Shown here piece by piece: positions 6,584 to 44,579 of a stretch of 51,199 nucleotides of DNA. This DNA is from Coemansia sp. RSA 487. Taxonomy: Eukaryota; Kickxellomycota; Kickxellomycetes; Kickxellales; Kickxellaceae. A program made the position numbers and the translations under genes. Under the pieces are notes generated by a model. The model had not been told where the DNA came from and made no database searches. It saw only the letters and a list, made by a program, of their open reading frames with translations. The stretch lies in contig JANBRJ010000112.1 of the NCBI GenBank assembly GCA_027577595.1, positions 1 to 51,199 on the forward strand, read 5' to 3'. The stretch's first letter is position 1. Each line of letters starts with the position of its first letter.

Positions 6584-7138
6584 ATGGATGTTTCAAAATT
6601 TGCACCACGTATCCGCGAGATCCTCCAGACCTCTGACCTGGCCACGATATCAGCCAAAAAGGTGCGGCGACAGCTGGAGCACGAGATGAACGCGTCATTC
6701 GATTCGTACAAAGGCGAGATTGACGAGATAATTAAGCAACAGCTCAAGAAAACCCAAAGCGAAGCGGAGCAGCAAAGTGCAAAGGACAATGTTAACTGTG
6801 GAATATTCAGCCCACAGAAACCAGCTGTCCGGTTGTTGTCACATCCTATGAAGCTGTCGGCCGAGCTGGGTGCCTTCCTCGGCAAAAAGTACTGCACACG
6901 CGCAGATGTTATCGAAAATCTGTGGAAGTACATCATAGAACACAGTTTGCAGGACCCCGAGGACCAGAGGTACATTCTGTGTGATGACAAGCTAAAGAGT
7001 GTTTTCCAAATTGACCACATACTTTTATACGGAATGAACAAGCTTATCAGTAGCCACTTGATTGAGCCCACACCCGAAGAGAGTGTAGAGGCTGCTGCTA
7101 TGCTTGAGTTGCTGAATAATAAGCAATGCATACTGTAG
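6584..7138 (+). CDS. DEK_C/SWIB-domain protein, short tandem paralog
   Basis: 184 residues. A DEK_C domain (about 5-53, RIREILQTSDLATISAKKVRRQL) is followed by a shortened linker and a SWIB/MDM2-fold domain (about 85-165, MKLSAELGAFLGKKYC and ENLWKYI). Yeast relatives are TRI1 and UAF30, nuclear chromatin-associated proteins (UAF30 in RNA polymerase I upstream activation). It lacks the AT-hook, the Met/Gln-rich linker and the acidic Ser/Ala tail of its neighbour at 7665. The first 157 bp of coding sequence differ from that copy at only about four positions, whereas the SWIB halves are clearly more diverged. The upstream TTG in frame is not used. It is probably a functional but reduced duplicate. 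Confidence 0.85.
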   Translation: MDVSKFAPRIREILQTSDLATISAKKVRRQLEHEMNASFDSYKGEIDEIIKQQLKKTQSEAEQQSAKDNVNCGIFSPQKPAVRLLSHPMKLSAELGAFLGKKYCTRADVIENLWKYIIEHSLQDPEDQRYILCDDKLKSVFQIDHILLYGMNKLISSHLIEPTPEESVEAAAMLELLNNKQCIL

Positions 7139-7664: not shown

Positions 7665-8684
7665 ATGGATGTTTCAAACTTTACACCGCGTATCCGCGAG
7701 ATCCTCCAGACCTCTGACCTGGCCACGATATCAGCCAAAAAGGTGCGGCGACAGCTGGAGCACGAGATGAACGCGTCACTCGATTCGTACAAAGGCGAGA
7801 TTGACGAGATAATTAAGCAACAGTTCCAGCAAATCCACAACGAAACACAGCAGCGCCAGCAGGTTCAGCAACAGTATGCGCAACAATACGCACAGCAGGG
7901 TCATATGGGTGGCGTGTATCATACAATGTCTGGGTTACAGATGCCTGGTGGCGGATACCCTGCAATGCCTGGCGGTGTGCCTGGCTCGATAGCCGGTTCT
8001 GTTCCTGCCGGAATGCCCGGCTCGGGAGCGCCGCCCGACGGAGCGCCGCGTAAGCGCGGAAGACCACGCAAGCCAGAGAACGATCGCAAGCAGGCGCGCA
8101 AGAAGCGCGTACTGGATCCCAACAGACCCAAGCGCCACACGGGGCTATCAAAACCAATGAAGCTGTCAGCCAAGCTGGGCACTTTCCTTGACCAAAAGTA
8201 CTGTGCACGCACAGATGTCGTCAAGAATCTGTGGAAGTACATCAAGGAGCACAATTTGCAAGACCCGGAGGACAAGAGGTACATTCTGTGCGACGACAAG
8301 CTGAAGGACATTTTCCAGACAGAGCGCCTGTACATGTACACAATGAATAAGCTGCTCAACGACCATTTGATCAAGCCGACGCCAGAGGAAAACGCAGAAG
8401 CCATTGTGTTGCTAGACTTGCCGCCCACACATCCGGCTGCTGCAGACAGTGTTGGCATCGTGGCTCCAGGAAGCGTCGCTGCTGCTGCCAAGGCTAGCAC
8501 TAGTACCTCGGCTGCTGGTGATGGTAGTCCCGCGCCTAGCGAGGACGACGGTACGCCGTCAGCTGCTGCTAGCGAGCATGATGAAGATGAAGCCCCTGCT
8601 ACGCCTTCCACCGTTGCCACTGCGCCGAATTTCGACCCAAGCATCGCCACCACCACCGAGTCACACCCAGCCAATTCTGCTTAG
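7665..8684 (+). CDS. DEK_C/SWIB-domain chromatin protein with AT-hook
   Basis: 339 residues, ATG in the context CTAAAATGGATG, identical to the short paralog. Domains: DEK_C (about 5-53), a Gln- then Gly/Met/Pro-rich linker, an AT-hook KRGRPRKP (about 129-136) that binds the minor groove of AT-rich DNA, a basic stretch, SWIB/MDM2 (about 162-245, MKLSAKLGTFLDQKYC and KNLWKYIKEHNLQDPEDKRYI), and a disordered Ala/Ser/Glu tail. This matches the TRI1/UAF30 group of nuclear proteins. It is the full-length member of the tandem pair and the likely source of the duplicate at 6584. The function is inferred from the family only. Confidence 0.9.
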   Translation: MDVSNFTPRIREILQTSDLATISAKKVRRQLEHEMNASLDSYKGEIDEIIKQQFQQIHNETQQRQQVQQQYAQQYAQQGHMGGVYHTMSGLQMPGGGYPAMPGGVPGSIAGSVPAGMPGSGAPPDGAPRKRGRPRKPENDRKQARKKRVLDPNRPKRHTGLSKPMKLSAKLGTFLDQKYCARTDVVKNLWKYIKEHNLQDPEDKRYILCDDKLKDIFQTERLYMYTMNKLLNDHLIKPTPEENAEAIVLLDLPPTHPAAADSVGIVAPGSVAAAAKASTSTSAAGDGSPAPSEDDGTPSAAASEHDEDEAPATPSTVATAPNFDPSIATTTESHPANSA

Positions 8685-16250: not shown

Positions 16251-16332
16251 GTCAGTATGGCCGAGTGGTTAAGGCGCCGGACTTGAAATCCTGTGGGCGC
16301 TGCCCGCGCAGGTTCAAATCCTGCTGCTGACG
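16251..16332 (+). tRNA. tRNA-Ser (anticodon UGA)
   Basis: 82 bases, intronless, reading UCA codons. The acceptor arms GTCAGTA and TGCTGAC pair, with one G-U, followed by discriminator G. The A box reads TGGCCGAGTGG and the B box GGTTCAAATCC. The anticodon loop is CTTGAAA. A long variable arm (GGGCGCTGCCCG) marks a class II serine tRNA. One C-U mismatch is seen in the anticodon stem (second pair). CCA is not encoded, as usual in eukaryotes. Confidence 0.97.
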
Positions 16333-21776: not shown

Positions 21777-22853
21777 ATGTCATTTGGCCAGCTCCGACCC
21801 ATCATCGGCGGTGGCCCAGTCAATGCACACGAATACCCCTACGTGGTGCACCTGAGTATCGAAACGCGACCCAGCTGGCACGCGGTATGCGGCGGGACTT
21901 TAATCTCTGCCAAACACATCGTGACTGCAGCGCACTGTGTGTTCCACACACCTTCGCCGCACGCAATCAAGGTCGGGTATGGACACGCGCACACGCAAAG
22001 ACAGAGAACAGCCAAGGCCCGTGCATTTTACATACACGATGGATTCGATTCGCGCACACTGGCAAACGATATCGCCGTCATCGAGCTGGAGGCGCCAATT
22101 AGAGAAACCAGAGAAGCGCACAGAGTGGCCGTTTACTTTGGCCCCATCGTGGGAGGCCATATGCTTAGGACCATGGGGTGGGGCGTCACCTCAAACGAGC
22201 CAGGCGCGCACACGGTAGCGCTACTGAACCGGGTGGACCTTGCCGTGGCTGCGCCTGCGGAATGCCGCAAGGTGGACCGTGCGTTCGTTTCGAGCAACGG
22301 GCCCTTTGTGTGCACCAGCACCGCGGGCGGGCGCGACGAATGCAGCGGCGACAGCGGGGCGCCGGCGATCATGATCCAGGAGGCGCCGAGATTTAGCCGA
22401 TCACGCGGATTGTTGTGGAACAGGAAGAAGTCTCGGCGGAGCGAATACGGCGTGCGGTTGGTGGCGCTGACGTCATATGGAGATAACACCAGCCACGATG
22501 CGCATCCGCTATGCGGCGACCCTGGCGGCTTCGGGTTTAGCACGCATGTGGCGTACTACCATGAGTTCATTACCAACGTCACTGGGCTGACGCAGGAGCA
22601 GATGCAAGAGCCGGTGCGGCTGGACCGCCTGGTAAGTTGACAATGAAAATAAATGGTTTGCTGGAGCGACTGGCAATTTTTTTTTGCTTGCTAAATCCGG
22701 ATAGTCAATCTTGTATAGGGCTCGTCGGATACTGCTGCGCGGCAAACGTCATCGGCATCAGGTGCGCTGCGCATGGGCCCATTGCGCACGGAACTTTGCG
22801 TGCATTCGGCTCTCCTTCTGATGCTGCTTGTGTTCGTCAGCCGCCACACTTGA
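21777..22853 (+). CDS. Trypsin-like serine protease (S1) with hydrophobic C-tail, two exons
   Basis: Exon 1 is 21777-22631 (donor GTAAGT at 22632) and exon 2 is 22719-22853 (acceptor TTGTATAG), giving 329 residues. S1 peptidase signs: activation-like RPIIGGG, catalytic His53 in TAAHC, Asp98 in ANDIAVIEL, Ser193 in CSGDSGAP, and Asp187 at the specificity position (ECSGDSG preceded by RD), predicting cleavage after Arg/Lys. GDSGA replaces the usual GDSGG. Exon 2 adds a Ser/Ala-rich spacer and a hydrophobic end (ALLLMLLVFV then SRHT), consistent with a GPI signal or tail anchor. No signal peptide follows the chosen ATG. Upstream in the same frame an ATG (21675) opens a hydrophobic stretch but meets a TAG at 21759. 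It is a paralog of the protease at 43461. Confidence 0.88.
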
Positions 22854-23153: not shown

Positions 23154-25451
23154 ATGGCATACCAAAAGGACTTTGACACAGTAAAGACAAAGCTACGAGA
23201 CCTTTGGACGCAGTACAACAGCAGCGGTGCCGGAGGCACACACACACCCGCCAGAGCAGTCGACACAACCGCCACCACCGCCGGCACCAGCGATGTGCTT
23301 GCGCCTGTTGAGGAGATGCTTCTGTTCCCCACATATGCGTACCGTGACGAGCAGCTCAAAGTATGGCGTGTGCAAGTGCGCGGGTGGGCGTTCTGCCGCA
23401 ACCCTACCACAAGGCGCGTGCGGCTGTCTGCTGCGCTTATCCGCAAGTTCATCCGCATCCCTGCAGGCGGCGACCCCGACAAGATGCTGGTCGACCGTGT
23501 CTCGTATTTGTTCGCAGGCAGCCCGGCGTCCACTGAGCTGGTCAAGGTGGCGATGGCTGGCATTGCGGAGCCTGCGCCATTCGAGCTCCATACCGTGCAC
23601 CAGCACCAGCACCACCACCCAACGGGGCCAGAGGCTCCTTCGGGAAGCCGTGCGCCCCCCGTAAGTCTCCTGGATGCCCCGATTGTGCTGACCTCGCGCT
23701 TTGACCCCACTGGGCCCTCTAATGGCAAGCAATCCGACGAGCGGCGCCGGTACTTGAATCCACCCAGCTCTGCCGATCAGGAGCAGCAGCTGAGGCATGC
23801 GCAGTACATTGGTGTTGCGCCAACCATTATCCAAAAGGCTCTGCAGATCGACGCCTTCTCGTGGCAGAACCTTGTGCTAGACGAAGGGCTGTTCCAGGGC
23901 GAAGTCCTCCTGGGCTACAATGAGCTCGAATGGCTCACGCAAAGCTACTCGTCGTCCACCAAAGAAGCAGCCACCGAGAAGAAGCGGCGGGTGATCGAGC
24001 TGCGCGGTAAGCTCTATGGGTGGCCTGACCACCGGGTGATCTCGGGGCTGGCGCACTTGGTGGAGCCACGCGGCATCTCCATAGTCTCCGACATCGACGA
24101 TACGATAAAGGCATCCAACATCACTGCTGAGAAACGCATAGTCCTCGAGACAGCCTTTGCACGGCCATTACAGGCAGTCCCGGGGATGTCTGCGCTTTAC
24201 CGGCTTTGGTACGAAAGGGGCGCAGAGTTCCATTACGTCAGTAACAGCCCATGGCAACTGTACCCGACACTGGATCGCTTCTTCCATCGCCACAAGTTTC
24301 CTCCAGGAAGCGCGCACTTACGCTCGTTTGATCCGAATGATCTTCTCTCTATCAAAAACTACACAGGCACCCCACAGCTGAAGCGCGATACCATCGAGCT
24401 ACTGTTCCGCACCTTTGGGGACAGGAAGTTTGTGCTGGTTGGCGATTGTGGCGAGCACGACTTGGAAACATACACAGAGCTGGCTAGGGCGTATCCAGGC
24501 CGCGTACTGCGTATCTATATCCGCGATGTTTTTGCGCCGATGAGCGTGGCATCGGTGACTACCGACGTCGACGTGGCTGGCAACAGTATCCACGAAGGTG
24601 TGATTCCGTTGGGCGTTGTACGGCCCCTCGATAGCCCCAGTGCTCGGTCCAATGCTGTTGAGGAAGCTGAGCTCATTAGCTTCCACGACGAAGATAATGA
24701 AGAGACCAGCAAGAGCCCACTTCCACCACCAGTGCCCCCCAAGCCCGCACACTTGCGACCCCAGTCGTCCACACCCCAATTCTCTAGACAGAAACCACCG
24801 CCAAAACCTGCACGCACATTCACTAGCACCAGTGCTCCTGCGTCGACCACCCTGCCTCGCCCGCCTAATGAGACGGTACCCCCCATGCTTCCACGGCGAC
24901 AGCCGTCCATGCCAAACACCCAGCCTACTCCCTTGGATGAAGCAACCACAGCCGACCGAATCGAAGCCAAGATCAACGAATTACGCGAGCAGGCGCAAGA
25001 ATGGATGGCATTCTATGCGCAACAGTTCTACGTTGCTCCAACACGCAGTTTCATCCGGTACGCACGGGTCTTCTTGCCCACCGTCCAGCGCAATATGCAC
25101 ATCATCGACTACGATGCTATCCCCGGCGCCGTTCACCAAGCCATGGCCGAAACCACTATGCCTGGACAACTACCCAATAGTACTGCTGACCAACCGGATA
25201 AACAGCCAGAAATGTTCAGCACCGTGCAATCAGCTCTGTCGTTTGGTGCACTCAATATCCCCGAGCCCCCGCCCTCCGAAGCACAGCTTGCACGTAATAC
25301 ACGTCGCCTTCTCTTGTGGAAGCGGTACTTGAGGGCTACCCAGGGGCTGCCTCCAGATATGTGTCGTCTGTTCGTCGATGCTGACGATATTAAACAGGAC
25401 GTGGAATTGTTTGATACTCTGTTCCCAAAGTACTCGTTCCCACAGATATAA
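23154..25451 (+). CDS. APP1: Phosphatidate phosphatase APP1-like (DUF2183)
   Basis: A Mg-dependent phosphatidate phosphatase producing diacylglycerol, at cortical actin patches in yeast. 765 residues, no intron. An N-terminal lipid-binding-like region has LLFPTYAYRD and WRVQVRGWAFC. The catalytic DUF2183 domain starts with ISIVSDIDDTIKASNI, with DxDxT residues D313, D315 and T317. It continues with FHYVSNSPWQLYPTLDRF, DLLSIKNYTG and KFVLVGDCGEHDLETY. The Pro-rich region 520-600 holds SH3-type motifs (PPPVPPKPA, KPPPKPART), matching the SH3-partner recruitment of yeast APP1. The C-terminal 150 residues are charged and helical. Longer than yeast APP1 (587). Confidence 0.92.
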   Translation: MAYQKDFDTVKTKLRDLWTQYNSSGAGGTHTPARAVDTTATTAGTSDVLAPVEEMLLFPTYAYRDEQLKVWRVQVRGWAFCRNPTTRRVRLSAALIRKFIRIPAGGDPDKMLVDRVSYLFAGSPASTELVKVAMAGIAEPAPFELHTVHQHQHHHPTGPEAPSGSRAPPVSLLDAPIVLTSRFDPTGPSNGKQSDERRRYLNPPSSADQEQQLRHAQYIGVAPTIIQKALQIDAFSWQNLVLDEGLFQGEVLLGYNELEWLTQSYSSSTKEAATEKKRRVIELRGKLYGWPDHRVISGLAHLVEPRGISIVSDIDDTIKASNITAEKRIVLETAFARPLQAVPGMSALYRLWYERGAEFHYVSNSPWQLYPTLDRFFHRHKFPPGSAHLRSFDPNDLLSIKNYTGTPQLKRDTIELLFRTFGDRKFVLVGDCGEHDLETYTELARAYPGRVLRIYIRDVFAPMSVASVTTDVDVAGNSIHEGVIPLGVVRPLDSPSARSNAVEEAELISFHDEDNEETSKSPLPPPVPPKPAHLRPQSSTPQFSRQKPPPKPARTFTSTSAPASTTLPRPPNETVPPMLPRRQPSMPNTQPTPLDEATTADRIEAKINELREQAQEWMAFYAQQFYVAPTRSFIRYARVFLPTVQRNMHIIDYDAIPGAVHQAMAETTMPGQLPNSTADQPDKQPEMFSTVQSALSFGALNIPEPPPSEAQLARNTRRLLLWKRYLRATQGLPPDMCRLFVDADDIKQDVELFDTLFPKYSFPQI

Positions 25452-26684
25452 ACCTGCCAGTGATTACTAATAGACTTATTTTTTAATTGCAAATGTTGTA
25501 TAATTTTTTTTTACATAGCTGATTATTTATTACGTAATACATTTGTAGAGAGAAAAAGCTACATTCCATTTCATTTGTTTTTTGTTGCCCTAATTTCTGT
25601 TACAACATCGCCAAAGCAATGAAGTGTTGGGTTTCTTGTGGATATGACTTTGGTTATTTGCTAGGCATTAGCATTAGCACATTATCTGTTTCCAATCAAC
25701 AGAGCCAGCTTGAATGTCTGATTGGGGTTCATTGAAAATAGAGGTTGAAAAGGGTGATTGCCAGCATTTCATTTTTGGGAGATTATCGGTATCCACGTAA
25801 AACTATTGTTTCTAAACGCTCGGAGGCATGTAGTTAGCCATTTTTTGTCGTGGAGCTCTTTGAGAGTGCAAATCCGGGCTATTGCTATAATGCTTACGCT
25901 TTGTTTATTTGCTCAAAGCGAAGCAGGTTGACTTTTTCAAACATCTATGTCCTAGTTAACAATAAGGGCCAAACAAGACACTCAATTCATTCTTAGTGAA
26001 TTTCCCAATCTGAGGTGGTGTTCAAGTGGCAAAACTGATACATAGAATCTGAATTGCTAATATCTGCTTTAGCTCAATACCTTTGCTGCACCTATGGAAT
26101 AGACAATGGACAGTAAGTCCTGGTTATCTAAACAGATACAGCCAATGGCTATGCTTTAGGCTATATTAGTGTCAGATAGAGAGTGTATCTCAAGCTTATT
26201 AGCATTGAATTTATTTGAAAACTTATGCAAAGATGTGAAAAGAGCAAATAGCTAACACAAGTGCAAACTTATCCATGTGCTTGACAGCACGCAGCTCAGA
26301 AACTGAAACTTGAAGCAATTTGGATCCTGAAAACATGCACATTATGCCATGTCTTAGACACGGGATGCATCATTTATGATTTAATTAAGCATGATGTTTC
26401 CACTTCCAATACCACATACATTTATATGTTGAACAAGCGCACTCTTGCTATTGTGTCACTTTTAAAAGATTCCAACACATATAAAAGCTGAGGATTGCCT
26501 TGCACCTGTGTGTATCTTTTATCCTGTATAAACAATCAATAATATATATTTATTCTCTAAAGATGCTACGTAAATATCACAGAAGCTCCAAGTATGGGGA
26601 AGAGTTACTGCATAAACTCAGGATCCAGGATGGCTAAAAAGGAGTATAACGCTTTTTTTAAATATTAGTATATTTTAAAACTAC

Positions 26685-26827
26685 TATAAAAATAAATAAA
26701 ACTAGCTAAAGAAAAAGAAAACAAGCAGATGCCCAAAAAAACCAATTGCCATTTATACACGTGCATTGTTATTGTTTACGTGTCATCAACGAACTGCGCA
26801 ATGTTGACACATTGGAGAGGGCAGTAA
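26685..26827 (+). repeat. Dispersed repeat, copy 2, with a 32-codon frame
   Basis: The homologous block 26685-26786 matches 1391-1498. It includes ACTAGCTAAAGAAAAA, CCAATTGCC and CGTGCATTGTTATTGTTTAC. The ATG-initiated frame 26729-26827 encodes 32 residues beginning MPKKTNCHLYTCIVIVYVS, against MSKRINCLLYACIVIVYMS in copy 1, and continues to a further Cys and His (NCAMLTH). No terminal inverted repeats are visible around either copy. Confidence 0.5.
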
Positions 26828-28023
26828 TCAACCCCTGCAACTGATTAACATTACATTCACGTAAGCAATAACAAATACTAACGTGACATCAAACCTAAAA
26901 GTATTTAATGAAAGCATTGCCTCGATAACATATATGCTACAATGAGGGGCAGAGGCAGACATGCTATGATTGCCCTTTCCTAAGTATGGCGTAGTGCTGC
27001 TTAGCTAAATTATTAGGATAGAATTAGTTGGTTTTGATCATACTAGAAATGGGGGATAAATAGTGCAAGATTGTCAGCATCTACGAATACTGCTGGCTCT
27101 GTTTATTCCCTAAGGAAAGTAAATCATTCATACTATAGTACACACATTGTAAAAGTAGCATATATTTACTGTAAATATGTCGCTATCACTGCGGAAATTC
27201 TGAAAGATCATATATGTGATTACAATTAGTAACCTTCCAGTTTTTTGGCACAGTATATGATCTAGTGATTTGTATATATTATAATCATCTGATTGTCTAG
27301 ATAGACTTGCATCGATCATAGAGAGGGTTTAATAAAGGAAATGGGTCAAGGATAATCGAACGGAGTTTTTATTGGTGTTGAGCTCTATGTGAAAAATAGA
27401 ACAAAGGTAGGCAAAAGCATTCAGCAAATTAGAACCATTGATAATTATTGTGGTTTGTCAGCGAGGCTATTAAAATTCAGACTGTAACAGTTTTGGTACG
27501 CTGCTCTGTTGTCCATGATATTTTGTAGCACAATAAAGTATTCGCATTTCTGTTGTTATTGTATCCTTTTTGATGCCGAAGATATCAGTACCCGATTGCC
27601 ACAATACAATACAATACAATACATGATAATTCGTATTCGTGATTATTTTTCACTAGTATCCTATTTTACTATTCAAGCACATAGTACTCACTTTTGATGA
27701 CAGTGGCTACAGCTAAAATACTACATATCTGATTATTTAATAATAGCACAGTATAGCAGTTCTGTTTCAAAATAATACAATGTAACTTTTAACAAGAAAC
27801 AGCAGCAGCTTTGTTTGTCGTAATTCACAGATCTGTAAGCGTATGATCTGTTTTATACTGTATACTGGTAGTGGTGGGTTCTGCAGACATATGTATAGTG
27901 TGTACCAGACGAATGTGGGCTAACCAGGTTTAGTGTGTTATTTTAAAAAATGGAATTGTGATTGTAGTATAATAAAACAACGAAAAACAGAAACACACTG
28001 CTACCTAATTTAATTACATATTT

Positions 28024-28209
28024 TTATTTGTCGTTGTCATTGAAAGTCGCAGTATTCTTGTTTGCTTCATATAATGACTCGATAGTTCTATCCACACAAA
28101 TATGGACAACAGGTATAAAAATCAAACCCAATGCTCCTTTGTTACTGAACCATTTTTCCGTAAAGCACAAATAGCATTGAACCTCTACAGATGATACATA
28201 ACCTCTCAT
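28024..28209 (-). CDS. Putative CxxC microprotein, 61 aa (divergent partner)
   Basis: A complete ATG-to-TAA frame. It starts MRGYVSSVEVQCYLCFTEKW. A CX2C knuckle (C12, C15) is followed 20 residues later by H36 and C38 (VVHICVD), which together could bind zinc, then a hydrophilic C-terminus (YEANKNTATFNDNDK). It is divergent from the zinc-finger microprotein at 28275 with 65 bp between the two ATGs, and a perfect palindrome lies in that gap. The spacing is not the classical C2H2 one, so this is less certain than the plus-strand members. Confidence 0.35.
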   Translation of the reverse strand: MRGYVSSVEVQCYLCFTEKWFSNKGALGLIFIPVVHICVDRTIESLYEANKNTATFNDNDK

Positions 28210-28250
28210 AAAAAAAGGTCACCGCATTTCCAAGATTTAGCAATAGCAAT

Positions 28251-28269
28251 CAGGATAGTAACTATCCTG
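28251..28269. promoter_or_regulatory. Perfect 19-bp palindrome between divergent micro-ORFs
   Basis: CAGGATAGT-A-ACTATCCTG: nine-base arms around a central A, ending six bases before the ATG at 28275. Its position resembles an operator for a dimeric DNA-binding protein. It could also fold at the 5' end of a transcript. Confidence 0.55.
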
Positions 28270-28274
28270 GGTCA

Positions 28275-28382
28275 ATGAGCTGTCCATATTGCAATGCTGA
28301 AGTTGACGGCCTTTATGGCCTAGGCGAACATTTGTATAATGTACATGATGTTGGAAGTACTGATTCATTTCAAACAACCTAA
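28275..28382 (+). CDS. Single C2H2 zinc-finger microprotein, 35 aa
   Basis: A complete frame from ATG to TAA. C3-x2-C6-x12-H19-x4-H24 is a classical C2H2 zinc finger spacing (CPYCNAEVDGLYGLGEHL then YNVH). The finger makes up most of the protein, followed by an 11-residue Ser/Thr tail. The exact spacing is shared with the micro-ORF at 31404, including EHhxxVH at the end of the helix. It has no known homolog that I can name. A single finger could bind DNA weakly, RNA or a protein partner, or interfere with a larger zinc-finger factor. Its promoter is not clear: it would lie within or near the divergent frame. Confidence 0.4.
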   Translation: MSCPYCNAEVDGLYGLGEHLYNVHDVGSTDSFQTT

Positions 28383-28588
28383 TTGTATATCCAACACAAG
28401 AAAAGCTTTTTCTTATTCAAAAGTTAGCACATTTAGTTCATGAATAAATTCATTGTACGTGTGCACTTTTCCAACTGTGTAACATCAATAAGAGGAGCTT
28501 TACCCATCGATTACACAGCTCCATCATATAATACTACTTATTTTATTGCAGGTATCCACAGTTGTCGTGTGCTTCCGCAAGATGGCTA

Positions 28589-28807
28589 ATGAAAATACTC
28601 ACTATACGTTGGATGTTTTCTGTATGTGTTTTGATAATAGCCATTTTCTACGACTCATATAACACCTTATTTGAAAAATACCAACTCCAAATAATGTTTA
28701 GTACATTAACACACAATGTCGCATCTAGTGAAAAATTTATGTTTAATCTTTTAACAGAAACATCATATATCATGAAATCCAACGCTATAGAAAAACCAAG
28801 CAGATAA
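28589..28807 (+). CDS. Putative small secreted or membrane protein, 72 aa
   Basis: ATG start MKILTIRWMFSVCVLIIAIF followed by a hydrophilic part (YDSYNTLFEKYQLQ) and ending KSNAIEKPSR. The N-terminus looks like a signal peptide or signal anchor. A possible splice acceptor (TTTTATTGCAG) lies 38 bases upstream. A minus-strand frame of 62 codons overlaps it. I prefer the plus strand because its hydrophobic start and charged remainder are organised like a real protein. No family recognised. Confidence 0.25.
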   Translation: MKILTIRWMFSVCVLIIAIFYDSYNTLFEKYQLQIMFSTLTHNVASSEKFMFNLLTETSYIMKSNAIEKPSR

Positions 28808-29295
28808 TTTATATTTTGATAAAGAGCCACCGCCATATAGCGTGTAGTGGCAAGAACATATTTAGATGTACTATATACCTTAAAAGTTTAACTGTTATGT
28901 CTCCTATAACCACTCACGTACAGTACATGGTGATGTATCAGACTAAATATTAGCAGCTATGCAAATAGCGATCAATCATTATGGTAGTGATGATTTGTGT
29001 ATTTACGTGAGTGTATTCACAATTACATATTAATTGGCAACGCAGGAACTATCTCATTTTGTAAACTCCAAAACGTTATAGTAATTACTTGATACAAAGT
29101 CCATGGAAGCACAGTTAAGGAAAATAAAGTCGCTTGGCTATTCAAAGAGATTAGTTGCCTGCTTAAATTTGTCGGTACTCTATGAACATTGACCAGCGAG
29201 TCACATTTATACGCGCTTGTATTCAGCATACCTTACCCTACCTTGCTATTTTAAACAAGCGCTTTAAGCGTAATCTACTTTCACATTAGTACATA

Positions 29296-29421
29296 ATGCT
29301 TATCTTTAACAACAGCCCCGAAATTTTATTTTATAGAAGACAAAGAGTGAGTAGGTGCTTAGTTTATAAATTTACATTTAATTACAAGGAAAGATATAGA
29401 AGACATGCTTTGTTCGCATGA
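29296..29421 (+). CDS. Putative micro-ORF, 41 aa, basic
   Basis: A complete frame, MLIFNNSPEILFYRRQRVSR followed by CLVYKFTFNYKERYRRH. Strongly basic and aromatic, with one Cys and one His, so no complete zinc finger. It lies within the micro-ORF cluster on the same strand as the zinc-finger members. It may be chance. Confidence 0.2.
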   Translation: MLIFNNSPEILFYRRQRVSRCLVYKFTFNYKERYRRHALFA

Positions 29422-29627
29422 TATGTATGTATATTAATACAGATCACCAAAACACATAATTTGCGGTTCAGAACAATTATCGCAACTTTTACAAATTTAT
29501 AATGAACCCGTATTGCACAATTCGTGAAAATGATCTTCGTATTCAACAAACAATGAGCATATTGTACAAAAAGCCATAGATCGGCAACACTGTGACCTCC
29601 TTCAATATAAATGTGAATGGAGCCGGC

Positions 29628-29636
29628 TATTTAAAA
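29628..29636 (+). promoter_or_regulatory. TATA-like box of micro-ORF 29727
   Basis: TATTTAAAA, 99 bp before the ATG, with no other ATG in between. Confidence 0.4.
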
Positions 29637-29726
29637 AGGAGCCGACAGTGCCCCCATTGGTTTCTAAAACAGTAAAGAACAACTGTAATTTGTTATTCAT
29701 TCCAAAAGCCATCATCGCCATCCATT

Positions 29727-29879
29727 ATGAGCGACAACACTGACAAAAAAGAAATCCCGCCAAAAATGTTTGGTCTGGAGTTATGTTTGTGCAAAGTATG
29801 CGGGAAATCGTATTACGGTGATCTAAAGTATGGCGCTTACTGTGATTTTTGCAGATATAACATATTAAAAAAGCGCTAG
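29727..29879 (+). CDS. Zinc-ribbon microprotein, 50 aa
   Basis: A complete frame starting MSDNTDKKEIPPKMFGLEL. It is followed by a Cys4 pattern C22-x2-C25-x13-C39-x2-C42 (CKVCGKSYYG then CDFCRYNILKKR). The CKVCGKS knuckle is typical of zinc fingers and resembles CKRCGKEF in the next micro-ORF 360 bp downstream. The charged N-terminus and basic C-terminus look like a designed small protein rather than random AT-rich sequence. The ATG is the first one downstream of a TATA-like box. A longer overlapping minus-strand frame exists but has no coherent motif. Confidence 0.5.
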   Translation: MSDNTDKKEIPPKMFGLELCLCKVCGKSYYGDLKYGAYCDFCRYNILKKR

Positions 29880-29966
29880 AAGGTTTACACTCGTGCTCCT
29901 TTGCAATGCTCAACAAACACAATAACTGTAGCGGGCTTTTTTTTCTTTTTTTTAGAGAAACAAACA

Positions 29967-29974
29967 TATTTAAA
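29967..29974 (+). promoter_or_regulatory. TATA-like box of micro-ORF 30089
   Basis: TATTTAAA, 122 bp before the ATG, with no intervening ATG. It follows a poly-T tract at 29936-29953. Confidence 0.4.
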
Positions 29975-30088
29975 GTGCAGTCAGGGATATTGTACCCACA
30001 GGGAAGCCTCTTTGTTGATTCGCACTTTTTGTCGAATAACAATACATTTTATTAAACATAACTCATTCACCTTTAACTTCAATCAGCA

Positions 30089-30229
30089 ATGGACAGCATT
30101 ACAAGCGAAGCAAAGTTTTTCGGATTCTTGAAATATTACAAGATTTACCAATGCAAGCGCTGCGGGAAAGAGTTTTCCACAATAGCCAAGTTCTGCAACC
30201 ATAGAATCCATTGTGAGAAGGTTAAATAG
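30089..30229 (+). CDS. C2H2-type zinc-finger microprotein, 46 aa
   Basis: A complete frame. After an aromatic/basic leader (KFFGFLKYYKIYQ) comes C22-x2-C25-x12-H38-x2-H41-C42 (CKRCGKEFSTIAKF then CNHRIHC). The CKxCGKEF start is the textbook C2H2 first half. The second half could use H41 or C42 as the last ligand (C2H2 or C2HC). The ATG context is GCAATGG. It is the first ATG after a TATA-like box, and AATAAA follows at about 30355. Arranged in tandem with the micro-ORF at 29727. Confidence 0.5.
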   Translation: MDSITSEAKFFGFLKYYKIYQCKRCGKEFSTIAKFCNHRIHCEKVK

Positions 30230-31275
30230 GTATTCATGTTCCCTTTTACACGGGCTTTGAAACAAGAATGCAGAAATTAGACAAAGTGAACTATTTCTCT
30301 GACTGACAGAGGTATATGTTGAATCTATATTTGTGAATACATTTGCAATGCATCAATAAAAGTCAAGATAGAAACAAACATGAATTAAAGTATTGATGTG
30401 GATTTGAATGTACCTGCTCTATAAAAAGCTCGAAGTGAGGAAATTTAAATGAATTGTTATTTGACAGCTCGCTAATTGGGATCAGAATCAAGCTAATATC
30501 CTCCGATTATGAATCAGCACGTCTGGTAGCAATTATCGAAACATGGTTTTCTATAAACTAGCATAATATTTTCTATATGAGTACAAATAATAAAAGTATG
30601 CAACTAAAGGATTTCATAATCACTGAATGGAGTATGATAAACACGCATTTTCTATTATGCAATAATGTAGATCAATGGGCAAGGAAACATACTCTGTAAC
30701 CATTTGTCATACAAATGTAAATTTCTACGGGAAAAGTGTATAAATATCAACAGAGAAGTACGTAATGAATAAATGATTGTAAGTATTGCAAAAAAGCTCG
30801 ATCTGTATAAAGAGAGAAAATCAGTGAGCCAAACATAAAGATTCAATCGTTGTAAACCGAACATTTTTTACAACCGATTATTGTATTACAAGTCAACATT
30901 ACCACCAAGCGAACTCAGGAAAGGAAAAACCTAGTTGGAATAATCTGACAATGTGAGTCGACGTGCTGATTTGTAGAGTAAATATAGCGACTTGTGATAC
31001 ACCTCCTTGGCAACAAATCTAGACATGGTTGCATAATTGCAAAATAGTTCAATTGAATAAGTTTAGTGCAGGAAAAAGACATTGAATACCTTAATTGAAA
31101 GATGTGTTGTAAATAGAATGCACTATGTGCGAGAGTGTTGCTATACACAAAACTGATGAGGCGATTGGGAATATTTATATTGTTTGTAGAGTAACTCAGT
31201 GAAATGTGAGAATGCGTATTAGTGAATATCTGATTAAGGTTCTAAAAGGAGCAAGAACTGCGTGTGAGCTCATCC

Positions 31276-31284
31276 TATAAAAAT
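31276..31284 (+). promoter_or_regulatory. TATA box of micro-ORF 31404
   Basis: TATAAAAAT, 128 bp before the coding ATG. One start-stop pair (ATGTAA, 31396-31401) lies just ahead of the main ATG. Confidence 0.45.
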
Positions 31285-31403
31285 CTAGTTATTCCTAGGA
31301 GCTTTTGAATTATCATTCTGTCGCTATATTACAATATTCGGGCAACCTAGATAATAACCTTAGGATACAATACTCGTCATAGGCTATACCAGCATATGTA
31401 AAG

Positions 31404-31523
31404 ATGCCCTGTCAATGCAAAGAATGCGACATCTGGTTTAAACTGTTTGCTGATTATGAAGAGCATATATGGAAAGTGCATAAAGCATGGATAAAAGTTG
31501 TGCTGCCATACGACGTAACATAA
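31404..31523 (+). CDS. Single C2H2 zinc-finger microprotein, 39 aa
   Basis: A complete frame beginning MPCQCKECDIWFKLF. C5-x2-C8-x12-H21-x4-H26 has the same spacing as the protein at 28275, and the helix ends EEHIWKVH against GEHLYNVH there. An extra Cys at position 3 gives CQCKEC. The C-terminal 13 residues are hydrophobic (WIKVVLPYDV). The leader carries a minimal start-stop uORF (ATGTAA) two bases before the ATG, which could repress translation. No homolog recognised. Confidence 0.45.
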   Translation: MPCQCKECDIWFKLFADYEEHIWKVHKAWIKVVLPYDVT

Positions 31524-32002
31524 TTGGGGAAATAAATTAGTAGAGGATATTGATTTTATACACACTATAGCACAGATCCTCCACAATACCACAGTTAGAG
31601 AATAGCGAGAGTGCATAATGTTACTATGCAAGGACAAGTAAAGCCGAACAGAGCAACAGAGGCTGTAAACACTTGCATTGTATATGGGGATTCTAGTAAA
31701 ATTCTAGGAACATATGCGGATAGTACACAACACACATATACCACTTGAGTGAAAACAAATAATCAAGCTGGACAATGGTGTAGAAGGAAGGCGTGGCTGC
31801 TGAGCACTGTGAACACTAATCTCCATTCTATTCACAATAAAACAAGTATTGAAAAAAAGGTTTAGCAAAAGTAATATAACTAGGAAAAACAGACACGGAA
31901 ACAATATTTCGTAAACAAGAAGTGCTGAGCGTAAAAGCCTTGTTACATTCCCTGACCAAATACACATTCAGTGCGTAAAGCAAAAGCGTGTAAATGAGTA
32001 AA

Positions 32003-34477
32003 TTAATTAGCGTTTACATAATGCTGGATGGCTGGCAGAACAGAACATAGCTTTGTTTCAACTTCAGCCCATTCCTCATCTGGATTGGACAGAATGGTCA
32101 GCGCTCCGCCTGCGCCGACGCACAGTTCATCGGGTCCGCTGATCACCGCTGTGCGGATCACCACGCTCCAGTCGGCTTGTCCGTTGGTCGAAAAGTACCC
32201 CAAGCATCCCGAGTACACGTTGCGCTGCACATGGTTCTCCAGTTTCTCTATTAGTCGCACTGTGCGGATTTTGGGTGCGCCAGTCATTGAACCAGGCGGA
32301 AAGCATTGCGCTAGCGCCATAACGTCGCCTACCGTGCCATTCATCTGCGCCTCGACTGTTGTAACCATCTGGTGCACGTGTTGGTAACTCTCGATAGCCA
32401 TCAAGCGGGGCACGCTAGTACATCCGCCCGAGATCGCATTAAGATCGTGACGGATCAAATCGACAATCATCAAGTTCTCTGCACGTTCCTTCACACTTTC
32501 TTGCAGTGCTTTGGCGGATTGTGTATCATGAACTGCCCACTCTTCTTCGCTCAGGTATTGAAGCCGCTCTGGTCGCCTAACTGTCCCCTTGATGGGCTTC
32601 ATCTCCGCTAACCGATTGCCATTGGAATCAACGGTGATGCGAAGGAACCGCTCAGGGCTACACGATGCAATGCCTGCACAAAGATCCGCGTACCAGAGGA
32701 GTGCCCCGTATGGAGCCGGATTGGACGCACGCATCTCTGTGTATAGCTTTGATGCATCGTGTGCGCAGCTGATGCGCGATTGCTCTGGCAGCGCGATCCG
32801 GAACTTGTTTGTCAAGCAGATTTCGTAGGATTCGCCTTGCGCAATGTATTTCTTGGCTTGGTCGATTGCCGCAATGTAGTTGGCACGAGAGAGCGCTGGC
32901 TCCAGGAGCACGGTCATCTCGCCATCTATTAGCTTTTTATTATTATCTTTGCGTTCGGTGGTTATTGCTGATTCGAGCCACTGTTCTATGCTCCGGACAG
33001 TCTGGTCAATCCATTGGTCCGCGCCCGCTTTATTTGCAAACCCTAGCGAATCCATCCACCGCCTACTAATACCGTGCGACTCTGCTCCGCTCGGGCTGCT
33101 ATCTTTGGCGACGATTGCAAGGATGTGGGCTTTTGGCGGGTTGTGCTTATGGTCAATTACCACACATCGATCCACAAACGAGAGCTGTGCATCCGGAAGC
33201 CCCTTTTCACCTTCATTTGATATAGCCGATTGTTTAGTTCCGATAATCTCTGCCTTCATCTCATACGCAAAGTACCCAATCCATCCGCATCGAAATCCAT
33301 GCGTAGGCGCCTCAATCACGCGAGTACAGTCAACCGCCTGCTGCATCCATTCCCAGAACGATATTCCTATAGTTTCCGTGGCCAGGACTGTAGGCTGTGT
33401 GGACAACTCGGAAAACCGTAGAACCGTAACTTTCTTCGTTTGCAAGTTGTAACGAACAGTCGCTCCGTGAGCGCTGGCGGCTGACGCAAGAACCGACTGG
33501 CTACTGTTCGCGTCTCCCGACTTAGCGCTATCGAGCCACAGGGGCATCGGATCATTGCCATAGAGGAATTTTTGCAACCGGCCGCCCAAATTATCTACAG
33601 GAAAACCGGGTAAGTCGACTGTTGCCGTCGCCAGCGAGTAGTGGCTTTTCTTTTCAGACGCAACAGGACGTCCCGTTGGCTTGTTTGCATATACAATTGA
33701 CATTTGTGCGACGCTTTTTTGGATCCCCATCTCTGAAGCTTTCTTCGTTAGGAACTCTCGGGTTATGTTTGTAAAGTTTGCCAGTATTTGTGCCCCGTAC
33801 TCGCTGGCTATGGACTCTGGGTGGAACTGGACGCCAAAGATCGGATACCGTTTATGTCTGAGAGCCATGATTTCATTGGTCTGTACGTCTTCGAGCTGTC
33901 CGGCCAGCCCTAGTGTTGCCACTGTGCCTGTAGCACACGCAAGCACTTGCAGCTCGTCATGGGGAAACCCGGTAGTGCTTACTGCCAGCGAGTGGTACCT
34001 GACCACTGTAAAGCGCTCGGGCACTCCAGCAAAAAGGGATCCTTCTTTGCTTCCGTCCATATGTATAACGTGTGTGGTTTGTCCATGGACAGGCACAGCG
34101 CATTGGTAGATGTGTGCCCCGTAGAGCCGCGCAATGCCTTGGTGTCCGAGACACACGCCAAGTAAAGGGCATCGAGTTTCTGCAGCATATCGGATCAGCT
34201 CATCGCAGATCCCAAAATCACCAGCACGTCCTGGCGTTCCTGGTCCTGGTGATATCACAATATTGTCGATATGGGGGAGTATTTGGTCTCGAACTACTGG
34301 CCATGGGTACTGGTCGTTACGAATCGTAAGCACCCTGCTATCTTGCTTGTATACATGAGTCCCAGTTTGCTGTTGCTGCACAAGTAGCTGAAGTAGATTA
34401 AATGTGTACGAGTCGTAGTTGTCTACCAGGAGTGTCCGTGGCTGCAAGCTGCGCTTGTCTTCGCTTATATACGGCAT
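32003..34477 (-). CDS. ABZ1: Para-aminobenzoate synthase (ADC synthase), fused PabA-PabB
   Basis: Makes 4-amino-4-deoxychorismate from chorismate and glutamine, the first step from chorismate to PABA and folate; cytosolic. 824 residues from ATG 34477. N-terminal glutamine amidotransferase (about 15-245): LLVDNYDSYTFNLLQLL, ISPGPGTP, nucleophile C109 in GVCLGHQ, and the His/Glu pair in GVQFHPESI. C-terminal chorismate-binding domain (about 330-815): EICLTNKFRI, PAPYGALLWY, PIKGTVRR (the Lys in PIKGT marks ADC synthase rather than anthranilate synthase), NLMIVDLIRHDLN, and SMTGAPKIRTVRLIEKLE. Intronless, full length, no sign of damage. Confidence 0.96.
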   Translation of the reverse strand: MPYISEDKRSLQPRTLLVDNYDSYTFNLLQLLVQQQQTGTHVYKQDSRVLTIRNDQYPWPVVRDQILPHIDNIVISPGPGTPGRAGDFGICDELIRYAAETRCPLLGVCLGHQGIARLYGAHIYQCAVPVHGQTTHVIHMDGSKEGSLFAGVPERFTVVRYHSLAVSTTGFPHDELQVLACATGTVATLGLAGQLEDVQTNEIMALRHKRYPIFGVQFHPESIASEYGAQILANFTNITREFLTKKASEMGIQKSVAQMSIVYANKPTGRPVASEKKSHYSLATATVDLPGFPVDNLGGRLQKFLYGNDPMPLWLDSAKSGDANSSQSVLASAASAHGATVRYNLQTKKVTVLRFSELSTQPTVLATETIGISFWEWMQQAVDCTRVIEAPTHGFRCGWIGYFAYEMKAEIIGTKQSAISNEGEKGLPDAQLSFVDRCVVIDHKHNPPKAHILAIVAKDSSPSGAESHGISRRWMDSLGFANKAGADQWIDQTVRSIEQWLESAITTERKDNNKKLIDGEMTVLLEPALSRANYIAAIDQAKKYIAQGESYEICLTNKFRIALPEQSRISCAHDASKLYTEMRASNPAPYGALLWYADLCAGIASCSPERFLRITVDSNGNRLAEMKPIKGTVRRPERLQYLSEEEWAVHDTQSAKALQESVKERAENLMIVDLIRHDLNAISGGCTSVPRLMAIESYQHVHQMVTTVEAQMNGTVGDVMALAQCFPPGSMTGAPKIRTVRLIEKLENHVQRNVYSGCLGYFSTNGQADWSVVIRTAVISGPDELCVGAGGALTILSNPDEEWAEVETKLCSVLPAIQHYVNAN

Positions 34478-39895: not shown

Positions 39896-40975
39896 ATGGA
39901 TCCAGAGTCACAGCATGCCAGGCTATTGTTTCTCGATATCCTGTCGTTGCCGAGAGCGCAGTCATGCGATGCAATCCTTCTTTCTGGTGGGCTTGACACG
40001 TCGATTGCAGCCGAGGCAATGCTGACGATGACACCTAACAAAGAAACGTCGCAGCTACGCAAAGGAATAACAGTTACTGTTGATCCGTCAGAGAACGAAT
40101 TGGCTAGCAAGAACGGGCTGTTTACGCAAAAGCCCGAAGATGTTGATTACGCAACGGCGATTGCACAAAAGCTAAAGCTAAATCATCACATACTTAGGCC
40201 AACGCTGGACGAGCTTCTTAACGGGAAAATGATGGAGCTGTGTGTCCGTGTTCTGCGCACATTTGAGGGGATGGAGCTGCGCAACGCAGTAGTCATTGCA
40301 ACTGCGCTCAGCTACGCAAAGAGCATTGGGTGCAAGCGCGTGTGCACCGGCGACGGTGCGGATGAGCTGTTTGCAGGATACAGCTTTATGCACGGGATGG
40401 ACGACGCGAGGTTGCGCGAATCTACAGAGAACATGGCGCGCACCATGAAGTTTTGCGCTTTTCCGTTGGCAAAGGAAATCGGGATAGAAGTGTGGTCACC
40501 ATACCTGGAACCAGACGTCATTGCCTATGCAGTGTCCGAGCGCGGAAATACTCGGCAAATGAAGGTTGGCGAGTACGATGGTGAGGTGCATGGAAAGCTT
40601 GTTTTGCGCAAGGCGTTTCCGGAAGTTGTGTCGGCTTCGCGCACGAAGGCAGCGATTGAGTATGGTAGTGGGAGCACAGTGTTGGGTGCGCTGACCGAGC
40701 TCATTTTCTCGGATGCCGAGTTTGAAGCAGGGGCACGGGAGGCATTGGAAAGGCACGACGTTGTGGTGCGCACCAAGGAGCATTTGGCTTACTTTCGGAC
40801 ATTTCGCAAAGTCGTGCTGGAAGACAAGAAAGTGCTGAGCACGGTGCCCCGGTACCAGAAAGGGCCGGAAGCCGATGGCGTCTGTTGCCCTGACTGCAAG
40901 TTCCGGCTGCGAGACAACGGAAGCACAAATTACTGCGACGTTTGTGGTCTATACCCAGTTATCAAAAGCAAGTAG
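39896..40975 (+). CDS. Stand-alone asparagine-synthase-like PP-loop ATPase with zinc ribbon
   Basis: 359 residues. The asparagine synthase C-terminal (synthetase) domain is clear: ATP-binding LSGGLDTS (SGGxDS type, Thr in place of Asp's neighbour), CTGDGADELFAGYSF, and KLVLRKAFPE followed by RTKAAIEYGSGS. The N-terminal glutaminase domain of normal asparagine synthetase is absent, so it would use ammonia or a partner protein, or perform a different ATP-dependent amidation. The C-terminus carries CX2C-x14-CX2C (CPDCKFRLRD then CDVCGLYP), a zinc ribbon not found in ASN1/ASN2. I chose ATG 39896 over an upstream TTG in frame. Similar stand-alone proteins occur in archaea and some fungi; the substrate is unknown. 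Confidence 0.85.
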   Translation: MDPESQHARLLFLDILSLPRAQSCDAILLSGGLDTSIAAEAMLTMTPNKETSQLRKGITVTVDPSENELASKNGLFTQKPEDVDYATAIAQKLKLNHHILRPTLDELLNGKMMELCVRVLRTFEGMELRNAVVIATALSYAKSIGCKRVCTGDGADELFAGYSFMHGMDDARLRESTENMARTMKFCAFPLAKEIGIEVWSPYLEPDVIAYAVSERGNTRQMKVGEYDGEVHGKLVLRKAFPEVVSASRTKAAIEYGSGSTVLGALTELIFSDAEFEAGAREALERHDVVVRTKEHLAYFRTFRKVVLEDKKVLSTVPRYQKGPEADGVCCPDCKFRLRDNGSTNYCDVCGLYPVIKSK

Positions 40976-43460: not shown

Positions 43461-44579
43461 ATGAATGCTGTCACTGCAATGTACCATTATCTCTGGTACG
43501 TGCTGGCGATGGCAACAGCAACAAGCACGTTTATCCAGAGCACAAAAGGCACAGTACTATACAGACGCCCTGTAAACAAGGAGTCGTGGGCACACGTGGG
43601 ACGTGTAATCGGGGGCACGGATGCCAGCCAAGGCGTGTACCCGTTCATGGCGTTCCTTATGGTTGACGACGGCGACCTCACTGCCTTTTGCGGCGGCACC
43701 ATCATAGCGCGGCAATGGATTCTGACGGCAGCGCACTGCGTTGTCGACACATCGTCTGGCGGTGACAGCCTAACCAATAAAACTCAGCATCATCCCAAGG
43801 GAACCCACATAAAGGCTCGTAAATTCAAGTCGGTCAAAGCGAGCAAGGTAAAAGTGGGCGTGGGGAGTATCTACAACGCGCGCACACACACGTACTCTGT
43901 ATCCAAAGTGCACGTACACCCGGATTTGAACCTCGATTACTTTGACAACGACATTGCGCTGCTGAAGCTCAAGAAAAAGCTTCGTTTTGACGACAACGTG
44001 CAGCCGATTCATATCGACACAGACACAGTGACTGACGGGCTGGTGGTAACTGGCATCGGATGGGGCAAAACAACGCTGGAGAGCCAAACGACCGCTAACA
44101 CGCTGCAGCAAGTCGACTTGCGAATCGGTAACGAGGCGCTGTGCAAGCGCATTCGGCCCCAGTTCACCGGTAACAACGGGGACTACATATGCGTGACGAC
44201 ACCCGATGGCCGCGACACGTGCTCAGGCGACTCTGGAGGACCCCTGTTGCGTCGGTGCACCAGCAATCCGAATCTTAGCGGGTCCGCGGGCTCCGGGCCG
44301 TGGGTGCAGCTGGGAATTACCAGCTACGGCGATAACGCTGAGCGGGATGCAAACGCCGTGTGCGCTTCGTCGAATGGCGCCGGATTCTACACACACATAG
44401 CGCCATATCTGGGCTTTATCTCAAAAACAACAGGGATCAAGCAAAAGGATCTGGCTGCCAGATGCAACGGCCCCAAAGTCGAGTTCGTAGGCACCAGCGA
44501 TGCCACTGGCGTGTCTCCATCGGTGGCTTTCTCGGCCCTGGTCATAGCAATTGTTGTGGAGGTTTTGTTCAGCCTTTAG
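43461..44579 (+). CDS. Trypsin-like serine protease (S1), secreted, probably GPI-anchored
   Basis: 372 residues, one exon. N-terminal signal peptide (MYHYLWYVLAMATATSTF), short propeptide, activation site GRVIGGTDASQG, catalytic His92 (TAAHC), Asp164 (DNDIALLKL) and Ser258 (CSGDSGGP), with Asp252 at the specificity position predicting cleavage after Arg/Lys. Six or more Cys fit disulfides. The end (SVAFSALVIAIVVEVLFSL) is a hydrophobic tail without following charges, as in GPI signals, with small residues upstream. It is likely cell-wall or membrane bound. Related to the protease at 21777 (shared ITSYGDN against LTSYGDN, and FYTHIAPY against FSTHVAYY). Converges with PCCB 41 bp downstream. 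Confidence 0.93.
   Translation: MNAVTAMYHYLWYVLAMATATSTFIQSTKGTVLYRRPVNKESWAHVGRVIGGTDASQGVYPFMAFLMVDDGDLTAFCGGTIIARQWILTAAHCVVDTSSGGDSLTNKTQHHPKGTHIKARKFKSVKASKVKVGVGSIYNARTHTYSVSKVHVHPDLNLDYFDNDIALLKLKKKLRFDDNVQPIHIDTDTVTDGLVVTGIGWGKTTLESQTTANTLQQVDLRIGNEALCKRIRPQFTGNNGDYICVTTPDGRDTCSGDSGGPLLRRCTSNPNLSGSAGSGPWVQLGITSYGDNAERDANAVCASSNGAGFYTHIAPYLGFISKTTGIKQKDLAARCNGPKVEFVGTSDATGVSPSVAFSALVIAIVVEVLFSL

What the first reader, a model, noticed from the sequence alone, without database searches (positions are those of the whole stretch)
28024..31523. Cluster of single-zinc-finger microproteins in a 'gene-free' region
Within 3.3 kb, four complete plus-strand frames of 35, 50, 46 and 39 codons each contain one compact zinc-binding motif: CX2CX12HX4H at 28275 and 31404, CX2CX12HX2H(C) at 30089, and CX2C-X13-CX2C at 29727. 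Three start at or near the first ATG 99-128 bp after a TATA-like box. They share knuckle wording (CKVCGKS, CKRCGKEF, CKECDIWF) and two share exact finger spacing and helix ends (EHLYNVH, EHIWKVH). Chance frames in AT-rich DNA rarely produce textbook fingers repeatedly on one strand. I know of no described family of one-finger 35-50 aa fungal proteins arranged this way; novelty is my inference. They could be competitors or modulators of larger zinc-finger factors, RNA binders, or a young gene family.
Basis: partly seen in the sequence, partly recalled or inferred. Interest (0 to 1): 0.85.

Follow-up and report, generated by a model that had tools for sequence, protein, structure and literature searches.

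The report
Cluster of tiny zinc-finger genes
A stretch of apparently fungal DNA with no large genes seems to hold four tiny genes, each encoding a 35-50 residue protein built around one zinc-binding finger; the fingers are far beyond chance, but expression and conservation are still unproven.

Summary
All four plus-strand frames are present as described, in a 6.5-kb AT-rich gap between two convergent genes. The full C2H2 consensus, hydrophobic core included, occurs at only three places in six frames of the 51-kb window: three of these four frames. None of 36,218 simulated gaps gave more than one on a strand. All 4 frames, but 0 of the other 31 ORFs in the gap, hit Pfam zinc families at E<=0.05, all below the curated cut-offs. 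Two post hoc features agree: a TATA-like box 99-161 bp upstream of 4/4 (2/31 other ORFs; weaker under other definitions), and the 8-mer AAAGGAGC, whose only four copies in the gap lie within 200 bp upstream of the four frames, one each. I read these as four small, perhaps co-regulated genes for single-zinc-domain microproteins. They are not recent tandem duplicates, and their charges differ too much for one shared DNA-binding role. Against: synonymous codon usage is gene-like in only one; no relative was found in the few searches possible, none of which covered fungi; there are no expression data. New variant of a known kind.

The parts
28275..28382 (+). ORF 1, 35 aa, C2H2 finger starting at residue 3; 0 K/R, 5 D/E
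   Evidence: Pfam Zn_SUZ12 E=6.1e-5 at 23.1 bits, cut-off 28
29727..29879 (+). ORF 2, 50 aa, C4 motif CX2C-X13-CX2C; 10 K/R, 6 D/E
   Evidence: Pfam C1_1 E=0.012, below cut-off
30089..30229 (+). ORF 3, 46 aa, C2HC/C2H2 finger; 10 K/R, 4 D/E
   Evidence: Pfam zf-C2H2 E=0.0024, below cut-off; AF2 model; highest synonymous-codon score of 35 ORFs
31404..31523 (+). ORF 4, 39 aa, C2H2 finger; 5 K/R, 6 D/E
   Evidence: Pfam zf-C2H2_4 E=0.044, below cut-off
28114..28121 (+). TATA-like box TATAAAAA, 161 bp before ORF 1
29628..29635 (+). TATA-like box TATTTAAA, 99 bp before ORF 2
29967..29974 (+). TATA-like box TATTTAAA, 122 bp before ORF 3
31276..31283 (+). TATA-like box TATAAAAA, 128 bp before ORF 4
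28133..28140 (-). shared 8-mer AAAGGAGC upstream of ORF 1
29635..29642 (+). shared 8-mer AAAGGAGC upstream of ORF 2
29895..29902 (-). shared 8-mer AAAGGAGC upstream of ORF 3 (16 bp after the ORF 2 stop)
31245..31252 (+). shared 8-mer AAAGGAGC upstream of ORF 4
25452..32002 (.). AT-rich gap between convergent genes that holds the cluster

Best explanation
The gap holds four separate, single-exon, plus-strand genes, each with its own TATA-like promoter and each encoding a protein that is little more than one zinc-binding domain. Shown here: the zinc frames and their excess over chance. Supported but post hoc: the TATA-like boxes and a shared upstream 8-mer, which suggest co-regulation, perhaps conditional, since 0 of 18 large ORFs of the window has such a box at that distance from its first ATG. 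Inferred: the peptides fold on one zinc ion and act as small binding modules. ORFs 2 and 3 are basic and could contact RNA or DNA. ORFs 1 and 4 are acidic to neutral; ORF 1 has no Lys or Arg, and the classical DNA-contact helix positions of ORF 1 (G, Y, G, E) and ORF 4 (L, A, D, E) look unsuited to DNA (numbering recalled), so these more likely bind a protein partner, as microproteins that sequester or redirect larger complexes do. The lack of DNA homology argues for old divergence or separate origins rather than recent tandem duplication.
For: C2H2 consensus with core: the window's three occurrences are all in these frames; at most 1 per strand in 36,218 simulated gaps. Pfam at E<=0.05: 4 of 4 hit zinc families, 0 of 31 other gap ORFs do (1 of 31 hits DUF5463). 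ORFs 1 and 4 begin M-S-C and M-P-C, so the finger starts at the ATG, odd for internal exons. TATA-like box 90-165 bp upstream: 4/4 against 2/31, Fisher p=0.00029 with a motif set chosen after seeing the sites. AAAGGAGC: its only four gap copies lie within 200 bp upstream of the four frames, one each; some 8-mer shared by four 300-bp pieces arose in 22 of 6000 random placements and in 12, 30 and 30 of 3000 Markov sets. The neighbouring genes are convergent, so these elements are not at their 5' ends. Single-sequence AF2 of ORF 3 gives a finger-like model with helix 32-45 (mean pLDDT 73.6), and most of the 50 Foldseek rows shown are C2H2 structures. phmmer of ORF 3 finds multi-finger proteins (best E=1.3e-12 summed over repeated fingers; best single finger i-Evalue about 1). 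An HMM of the three fingers finds no decayed copies.
Against: Synonymous codon score is background-like in three of four (-0.37, -0.18, -0.22 bits per codon; +0.10 for ORF 3; large ORFs, which trained the score, 0.05 to 0.49), and the full codon score is negative for all four. No Pfam hit reaches its cut-off. phmmer of ORF 1 lists mostly ferritins, best E=0.025, and ORF 4 has best E=0.56. These collections are not fungal, so this says little. TATA p-values run from 0.00067 to 0.22 under the 17 other motif/distance settings. The 8-mer emerged from a scan in which none of six k-mer settings stood out; it varies in strand, and lies before the TATA-like box in ORFs 3 and 4 but after it in 1 and 2. 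AATAAA within 130 bp follows three of four, in a gap with 12 copies on that strand. ORFs 2 and 3 contain donor-like GT sites, so splicing is not excluded. The other four AF2 models of ORF 3 scored 43-66, its best Foldseek E is 0.61, and the ORF 2 fold is unresolved. No expression data.
Confidence: 0.6

Rival explanations
1. The finger frames are exons of one or more larger spliced zinc-finger genes that ORF listing cannot show.
For: Small frames between stops can be exons; ORFs 2 and 3 contain donor-like GT sites and a pyrimidine tract ending in AG lies after ORF 2.
Against: In ORFs 1 and 4 the ATG directly precedes the finger; these two contain no GT[AG]NG donor; the frames lie 0.2-1.3 kb apart; each has its own TATA-like box and 8-mer. 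No acceptor or intron model was run.
Confidence: 0.12
2. They are relics of dead zinc-finger genes or fragments scattered in decaying intergenic DNA.
For: AT-rich gap and background-like codon usage in three of four.
Against: Metal ligands and hydrophobic cores are intact in three of three C2H2-type frames, with start and stop codons; no partly decayed finger was found by the HMM (next best E=0.27); no linker or domain remnants hit Pfam zinc families among the other 31 ORFs.
Confidence: 0.12
3. Chance frames: random AT-rich DNA that happens to encode finger-like peptides.
For: Three of four lack gene-like codon usage. The finding was picked by a scan of unknown size, and TATA and 8-mer tests are post hoc.
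Against: 0.005-0.007 consensus frames expected per gap, 3 found; extrapolated Poisson probability near 6e-8 per gap (my inference), so even a scan of very many gaps hardly yields it; separate Pfam control 4/4 against 0/31.
Confidence: 0.08
4. Real genes, but the peptides are ribosome-associated or otherwise structural zinc proteins, not regulators.
For: ORF 2 resembles uS14 weakly (E=0.055); the top row for ORF 4 is a 64-aa C2H2 protein modelled in an archaeal ribosome (E=0.56).
Against: Neither match is significant; no S14 model among Pfam hits; acidic ORF 1 is an unlikely rRNA binder.
Confidence: 0.08

Closest known systems
[quoted passage not shown] 2019, PMC6562870; abstract and section 3.1 read)
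   Same: Proteins of up to 70 aa made of one predicted zinc domain, many in one genome; 12 of 16 deletion mutants differed from wild type in at least one condition, none under optimal or near-optimal growth.
   Different: Archaeal; two C(P)XCG motifs rather than C2H2; the parts read do not describe a TATA-driven cluster. No ORF here has two such motifs.
AFV1p06, 59-aa single-finger protein of an archaeal virus, PDB 2lvh (Guilliere et al. 2013, PMC3541406; abstract and two passages read)
   Same: A tiny protein of one C2H2-type finger with short extensions; listed for ORF 3 by phmmer (E=0.0039).
   Different: Viral gene of a hyperthermophile; a Glu replaces the fourth ligand; DNA binding shown by gel shift there, untested here. 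The match is generic finger similarity.
64-65 aa C2H2-type domain-containing proteins in archaeal ribosome structures (PDB 9qf4, 9sra, chain Bk)
   Same: Single-finger protein of similar size; top row for ORF 4; 9qf4/9qf5 also listed for the ORF 3 model.
   Different: E=0.56, not significant; ribosome binding untested for these frames.
MicroProteins such as miP1a/b (PMC4807768, start of abstract in listing; PMC5381583, passages read; that miP1a/b are B-box zinc proteins is recalled)
   Different: Defined by relation to a larger multidomain protein; none identified here.
Fungal nuclear effectors MoHTR1/2 (PMC7672089, passages read)
   Same: Fungal proteins with a C2H2 finger, compared there with GAGA factor and its single finger.
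   Different: Secreted with a signal peptide and basic residues flanking the finger; the frames here show no hydrophobic leader by eye (no predictor run).
uS14 (eS29) zinc ribosomal protein
   Same: ORF 2 residues 11-43 align with plant uS14 of 56 aa (PK..G, C[KR]VCG, KYG), E=0.055.
   Different: Not significant; no S14 model in the Pfam list.

Membership tests
C2H2 zinc finger | C-x2,4-C-x3-hydrophobic-x5-hydrophobic-x2-H-x3,5-[HC] | tested here: met
   ORFs 1, 3 and 4 match in full; no other place in six frames of the window does. ORF 2 is C4 and does not
C2H2 zinc finger | Pfam model score above curated cut-off | tested here: not met
   Best: Zn_SUZ12 23.1 against 28 (ORF 1), zf-C2H2 18.7 against 25.2 (ORF 3), zf-C2H2_4 14.9 against 27 (ORF 4)
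C2H2 zinc finger | beta-hairpin plus helix fold | tested here: inconclusive
   ORF 3 only: helix 32-45 after short strands; most of 50 rows shown are C2H2, none with E<=0.001. ORFs 1 and 4 not modelled
C2H2 zinc finger | zinc binding | not testable with these tools
   needs purified peptide
C4 zinc ribbon or treble clef (ORF 2) | two CX2C knuckles in a recognisable fold | tested here: inconclusive
   Knuckles present; model mean pLDDT 72.4, best Foldseek E=1.1
Haloarchaeal C(P)XCG u-proteins | two C(P)XCG motifs in at most 70 aa | tested here: not met
   No ORF has two; ORFs 2 (CKVCG) and 3 (CKRCG) have one CXXCG each
MicroProtein | larger protein sharing the interaction domain, as ancestor or target | not tested
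   The window's own genome is not held
Recently duplicated gene family | DNA similarity between units or flanks above shuffles | tested here: not met
   18 pairwise local alignments, z from -1.7 to +1.7
uS14 ribosomal protein (ORF 2) | family profile match | tested here: not met
   No S14 model in the Pfam list for ORF 2 at E<=10 (filters drop most matches above about 0.1)

The most novel reading that the evidence does not exclude
An array of four independently promoted, co-regulated, lineage-specific genes for minimal one-zinc-domain proteins in a fungus: a eukaryotic counterpart of the haloarchaeal zinc u-proteins, with some members binding nucleic acid and others protein, in a gap that ORF-length filters would call empty.
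Probability: 0.45. Interest if true: 0.75.

Novelty: new variant of a known kind. Interest (0 to 1): 0.55.

Why it matters
If real, it shows that intergenic gaps of eukaryotes can hold clusters of single-domain zinc proteins that gene finders skip, and gives a marked test case for small-ORF biology: metal ligands make function easy to break and conservation easy to score. It would also bring to a eukaryote a kind of protein studied by systematic deletion in an archaeon (PMC6562870).

Tried and rejected
Codon usage as proof of coding: supports only ORF 3. Tandem duplication: no DNA homology. Viral origin: no phage match for ORFs 2 and 3 at E<=1, no Rfam match in 25000-32500 at E<=1, no tRNA in the gap. 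L001 and L002 (IMG/VR) matched ORF 3 over 13 residues only, the knuckle of a 69-aa ORF with other spacing; rejected. L003 (a bacterial MAG) matched ORF 2 over 27 residues, but as a short stretch in a frame broken by stops; taken as chance. Link between ORF 2 and the ribbon at the end of the Asn_synthase ORF: same spacing, weak two-sequence match (E=0.025 for that one comparison), not pursued. Shared k-mers beyond AAAGGAGC: none of six settings exceeded random pieces. Paper searches (10 of 10 used) gave no listing of a fungal cluster of single-finger microproteins; the library holds open-licence papers only, so this is no proof of absence. PMC7394265 (fungal small ORFs, passages) has no mention of zinc finger in its main text.
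Full report
What is there. They lie in a 6.5-kb gap, about 33-36% G+C over most of its length, between two convergent large ORFs: one with the APP1 catalytic domain and one with GATase and chorismate-binding domains. The window's other large ORFs (eIF3g, PRP38, SART-1, APP1, PhoD_2 domains among them) fit a eukaryote, plausibly a fungus; the genome is not held, and the Kickxellomycotina label is unverified.

Is it more than chance? The textbook C2H2 consensus with both hydrophobic core positions was searched in all six frames of the window. It occurs at three places, and they are three of the four frames. Sequences simulated from the gap gave 0.005-0.007 such frames each, and none of 36,218 gave more than one on a strand. 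The fourth frame has a C4 motif found once in the window, with 0.05 expected per gap. Looser patterns leave a smaller but clear excess: 4 against about 0.2, and 6 against about 1. As a control that does not use my patterns, all 35 ORFs of 30-120 aa of the gap were scanned against Pfam at E<=0.05: 4 of 4 finger ORFs hit zinc models (all below the curated cut-offs), and of the other 31 one hit a DUF.

Are they genes? Two promoter-side features point that way, both defined after looking. A TATA-like box lies 90-165 bp upstream of 4/4 finger ORFs and 2/31 others (p=0.00029), but p ranges from 0.00067 to 0.22 over 17 other motif and distance settings. The 8-mer AAAGGAGC occurs eight times in the window and four times in the gap; those four lie 142, 92, 194 and 159 bp before the four starts, one each. 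An 8-mer common to four 300-bp pieces arose in 22 of 6000 random placements and in 12, 30 and 30 of 3000 simulated sets of order 1, 2 and 3. It varies in strand and in side relative to the box, and the scan that showed it had no outstanding setting. Since the neighbours are convergent, these elements are not at their 5' ends. Codon usage is the main contrary result: only ORF 3 scores gene-like on synonymous codons, and none does on full codon score. That is expected for short young genes in AT-rich DNA, but equally for non-genes.

What do they make? ORF 3 looks like a Kruppel-type finger by sequence, and a single-sequence model has the finger's helix, at modest confidence and without a significant fold match. 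ORF 1 is nearest the SUZ12-type zinc model but below its cut-off, and its phmmer list is mostly ferritins, taken as chance. ORF 4 has only weak matches. ORF 2 weakly resembles uS14 and C1 domains; its fold is unresolved. Charge counts (K+R / D+E) are 0/5, 10/6, 10/4 and 5/6 for ORFs 1-4, so a single common DNA-binding role is unlikely.

Origin. Neither the ORFs nor their flanks are alike at DNA level, and no decayed fingers surround them. They are therefore not recent copies; old duplication and separate origins are both open.

Relatives. ORFs 1-3 in viral contigs, ORF 2 in genome contigs and ORFs 2 and 3 in phages gave no credible relative. ORF 4 could not be searched. Fungal genomes, the ones that matter, are not in these collections.

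Verdict. Real zinc-finger coding frames (very likely), real small genes (likely), shared regulation (suggestive), molecular role (inferred only). Closest in kind are haloarchaeal zinc u-proteins (PMC6562870) and the viral AFV1p06 (PMC3541406), neither of which they belong to by the tests made.

Noticed in passing
6584-7138 and 7665-8684: Two neighbouring ORFs with near-identical N-termini and similar C-terminal halves by eye; the longer has DEK_C and SWIB domains, the shorter lacks the middle linker.
   Followed up: no
39896-40975: Asn_synthase-domain ORF ending in a CX2C-X13-CX2C zinc motif, the same spacing as ORF 2.
   Followed up: partly
21777-22640 and 43461-44579: Two trypsin-domain ORFs in one window.
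   Followed up: no
30420 and 30806: Further TATAAAA/G sites on the + strand of the gap with no zinc frame at the distance seen for the four ORFs; could mark noncoding or spliced genes.
   Followed up: no
L001 1409-1618 and L002 1721-1930: Viral contigs carry an identical 69-aa ORF containing YRIYQCKRCGKE and a later HHC, like ORF 3's YKIYQCKRCGKE knuckle but with other spacing.
   Followed up: partly
16251-16332: tRNA-Ser (TGA) predicted by ARAGORN.
   Followed up: no
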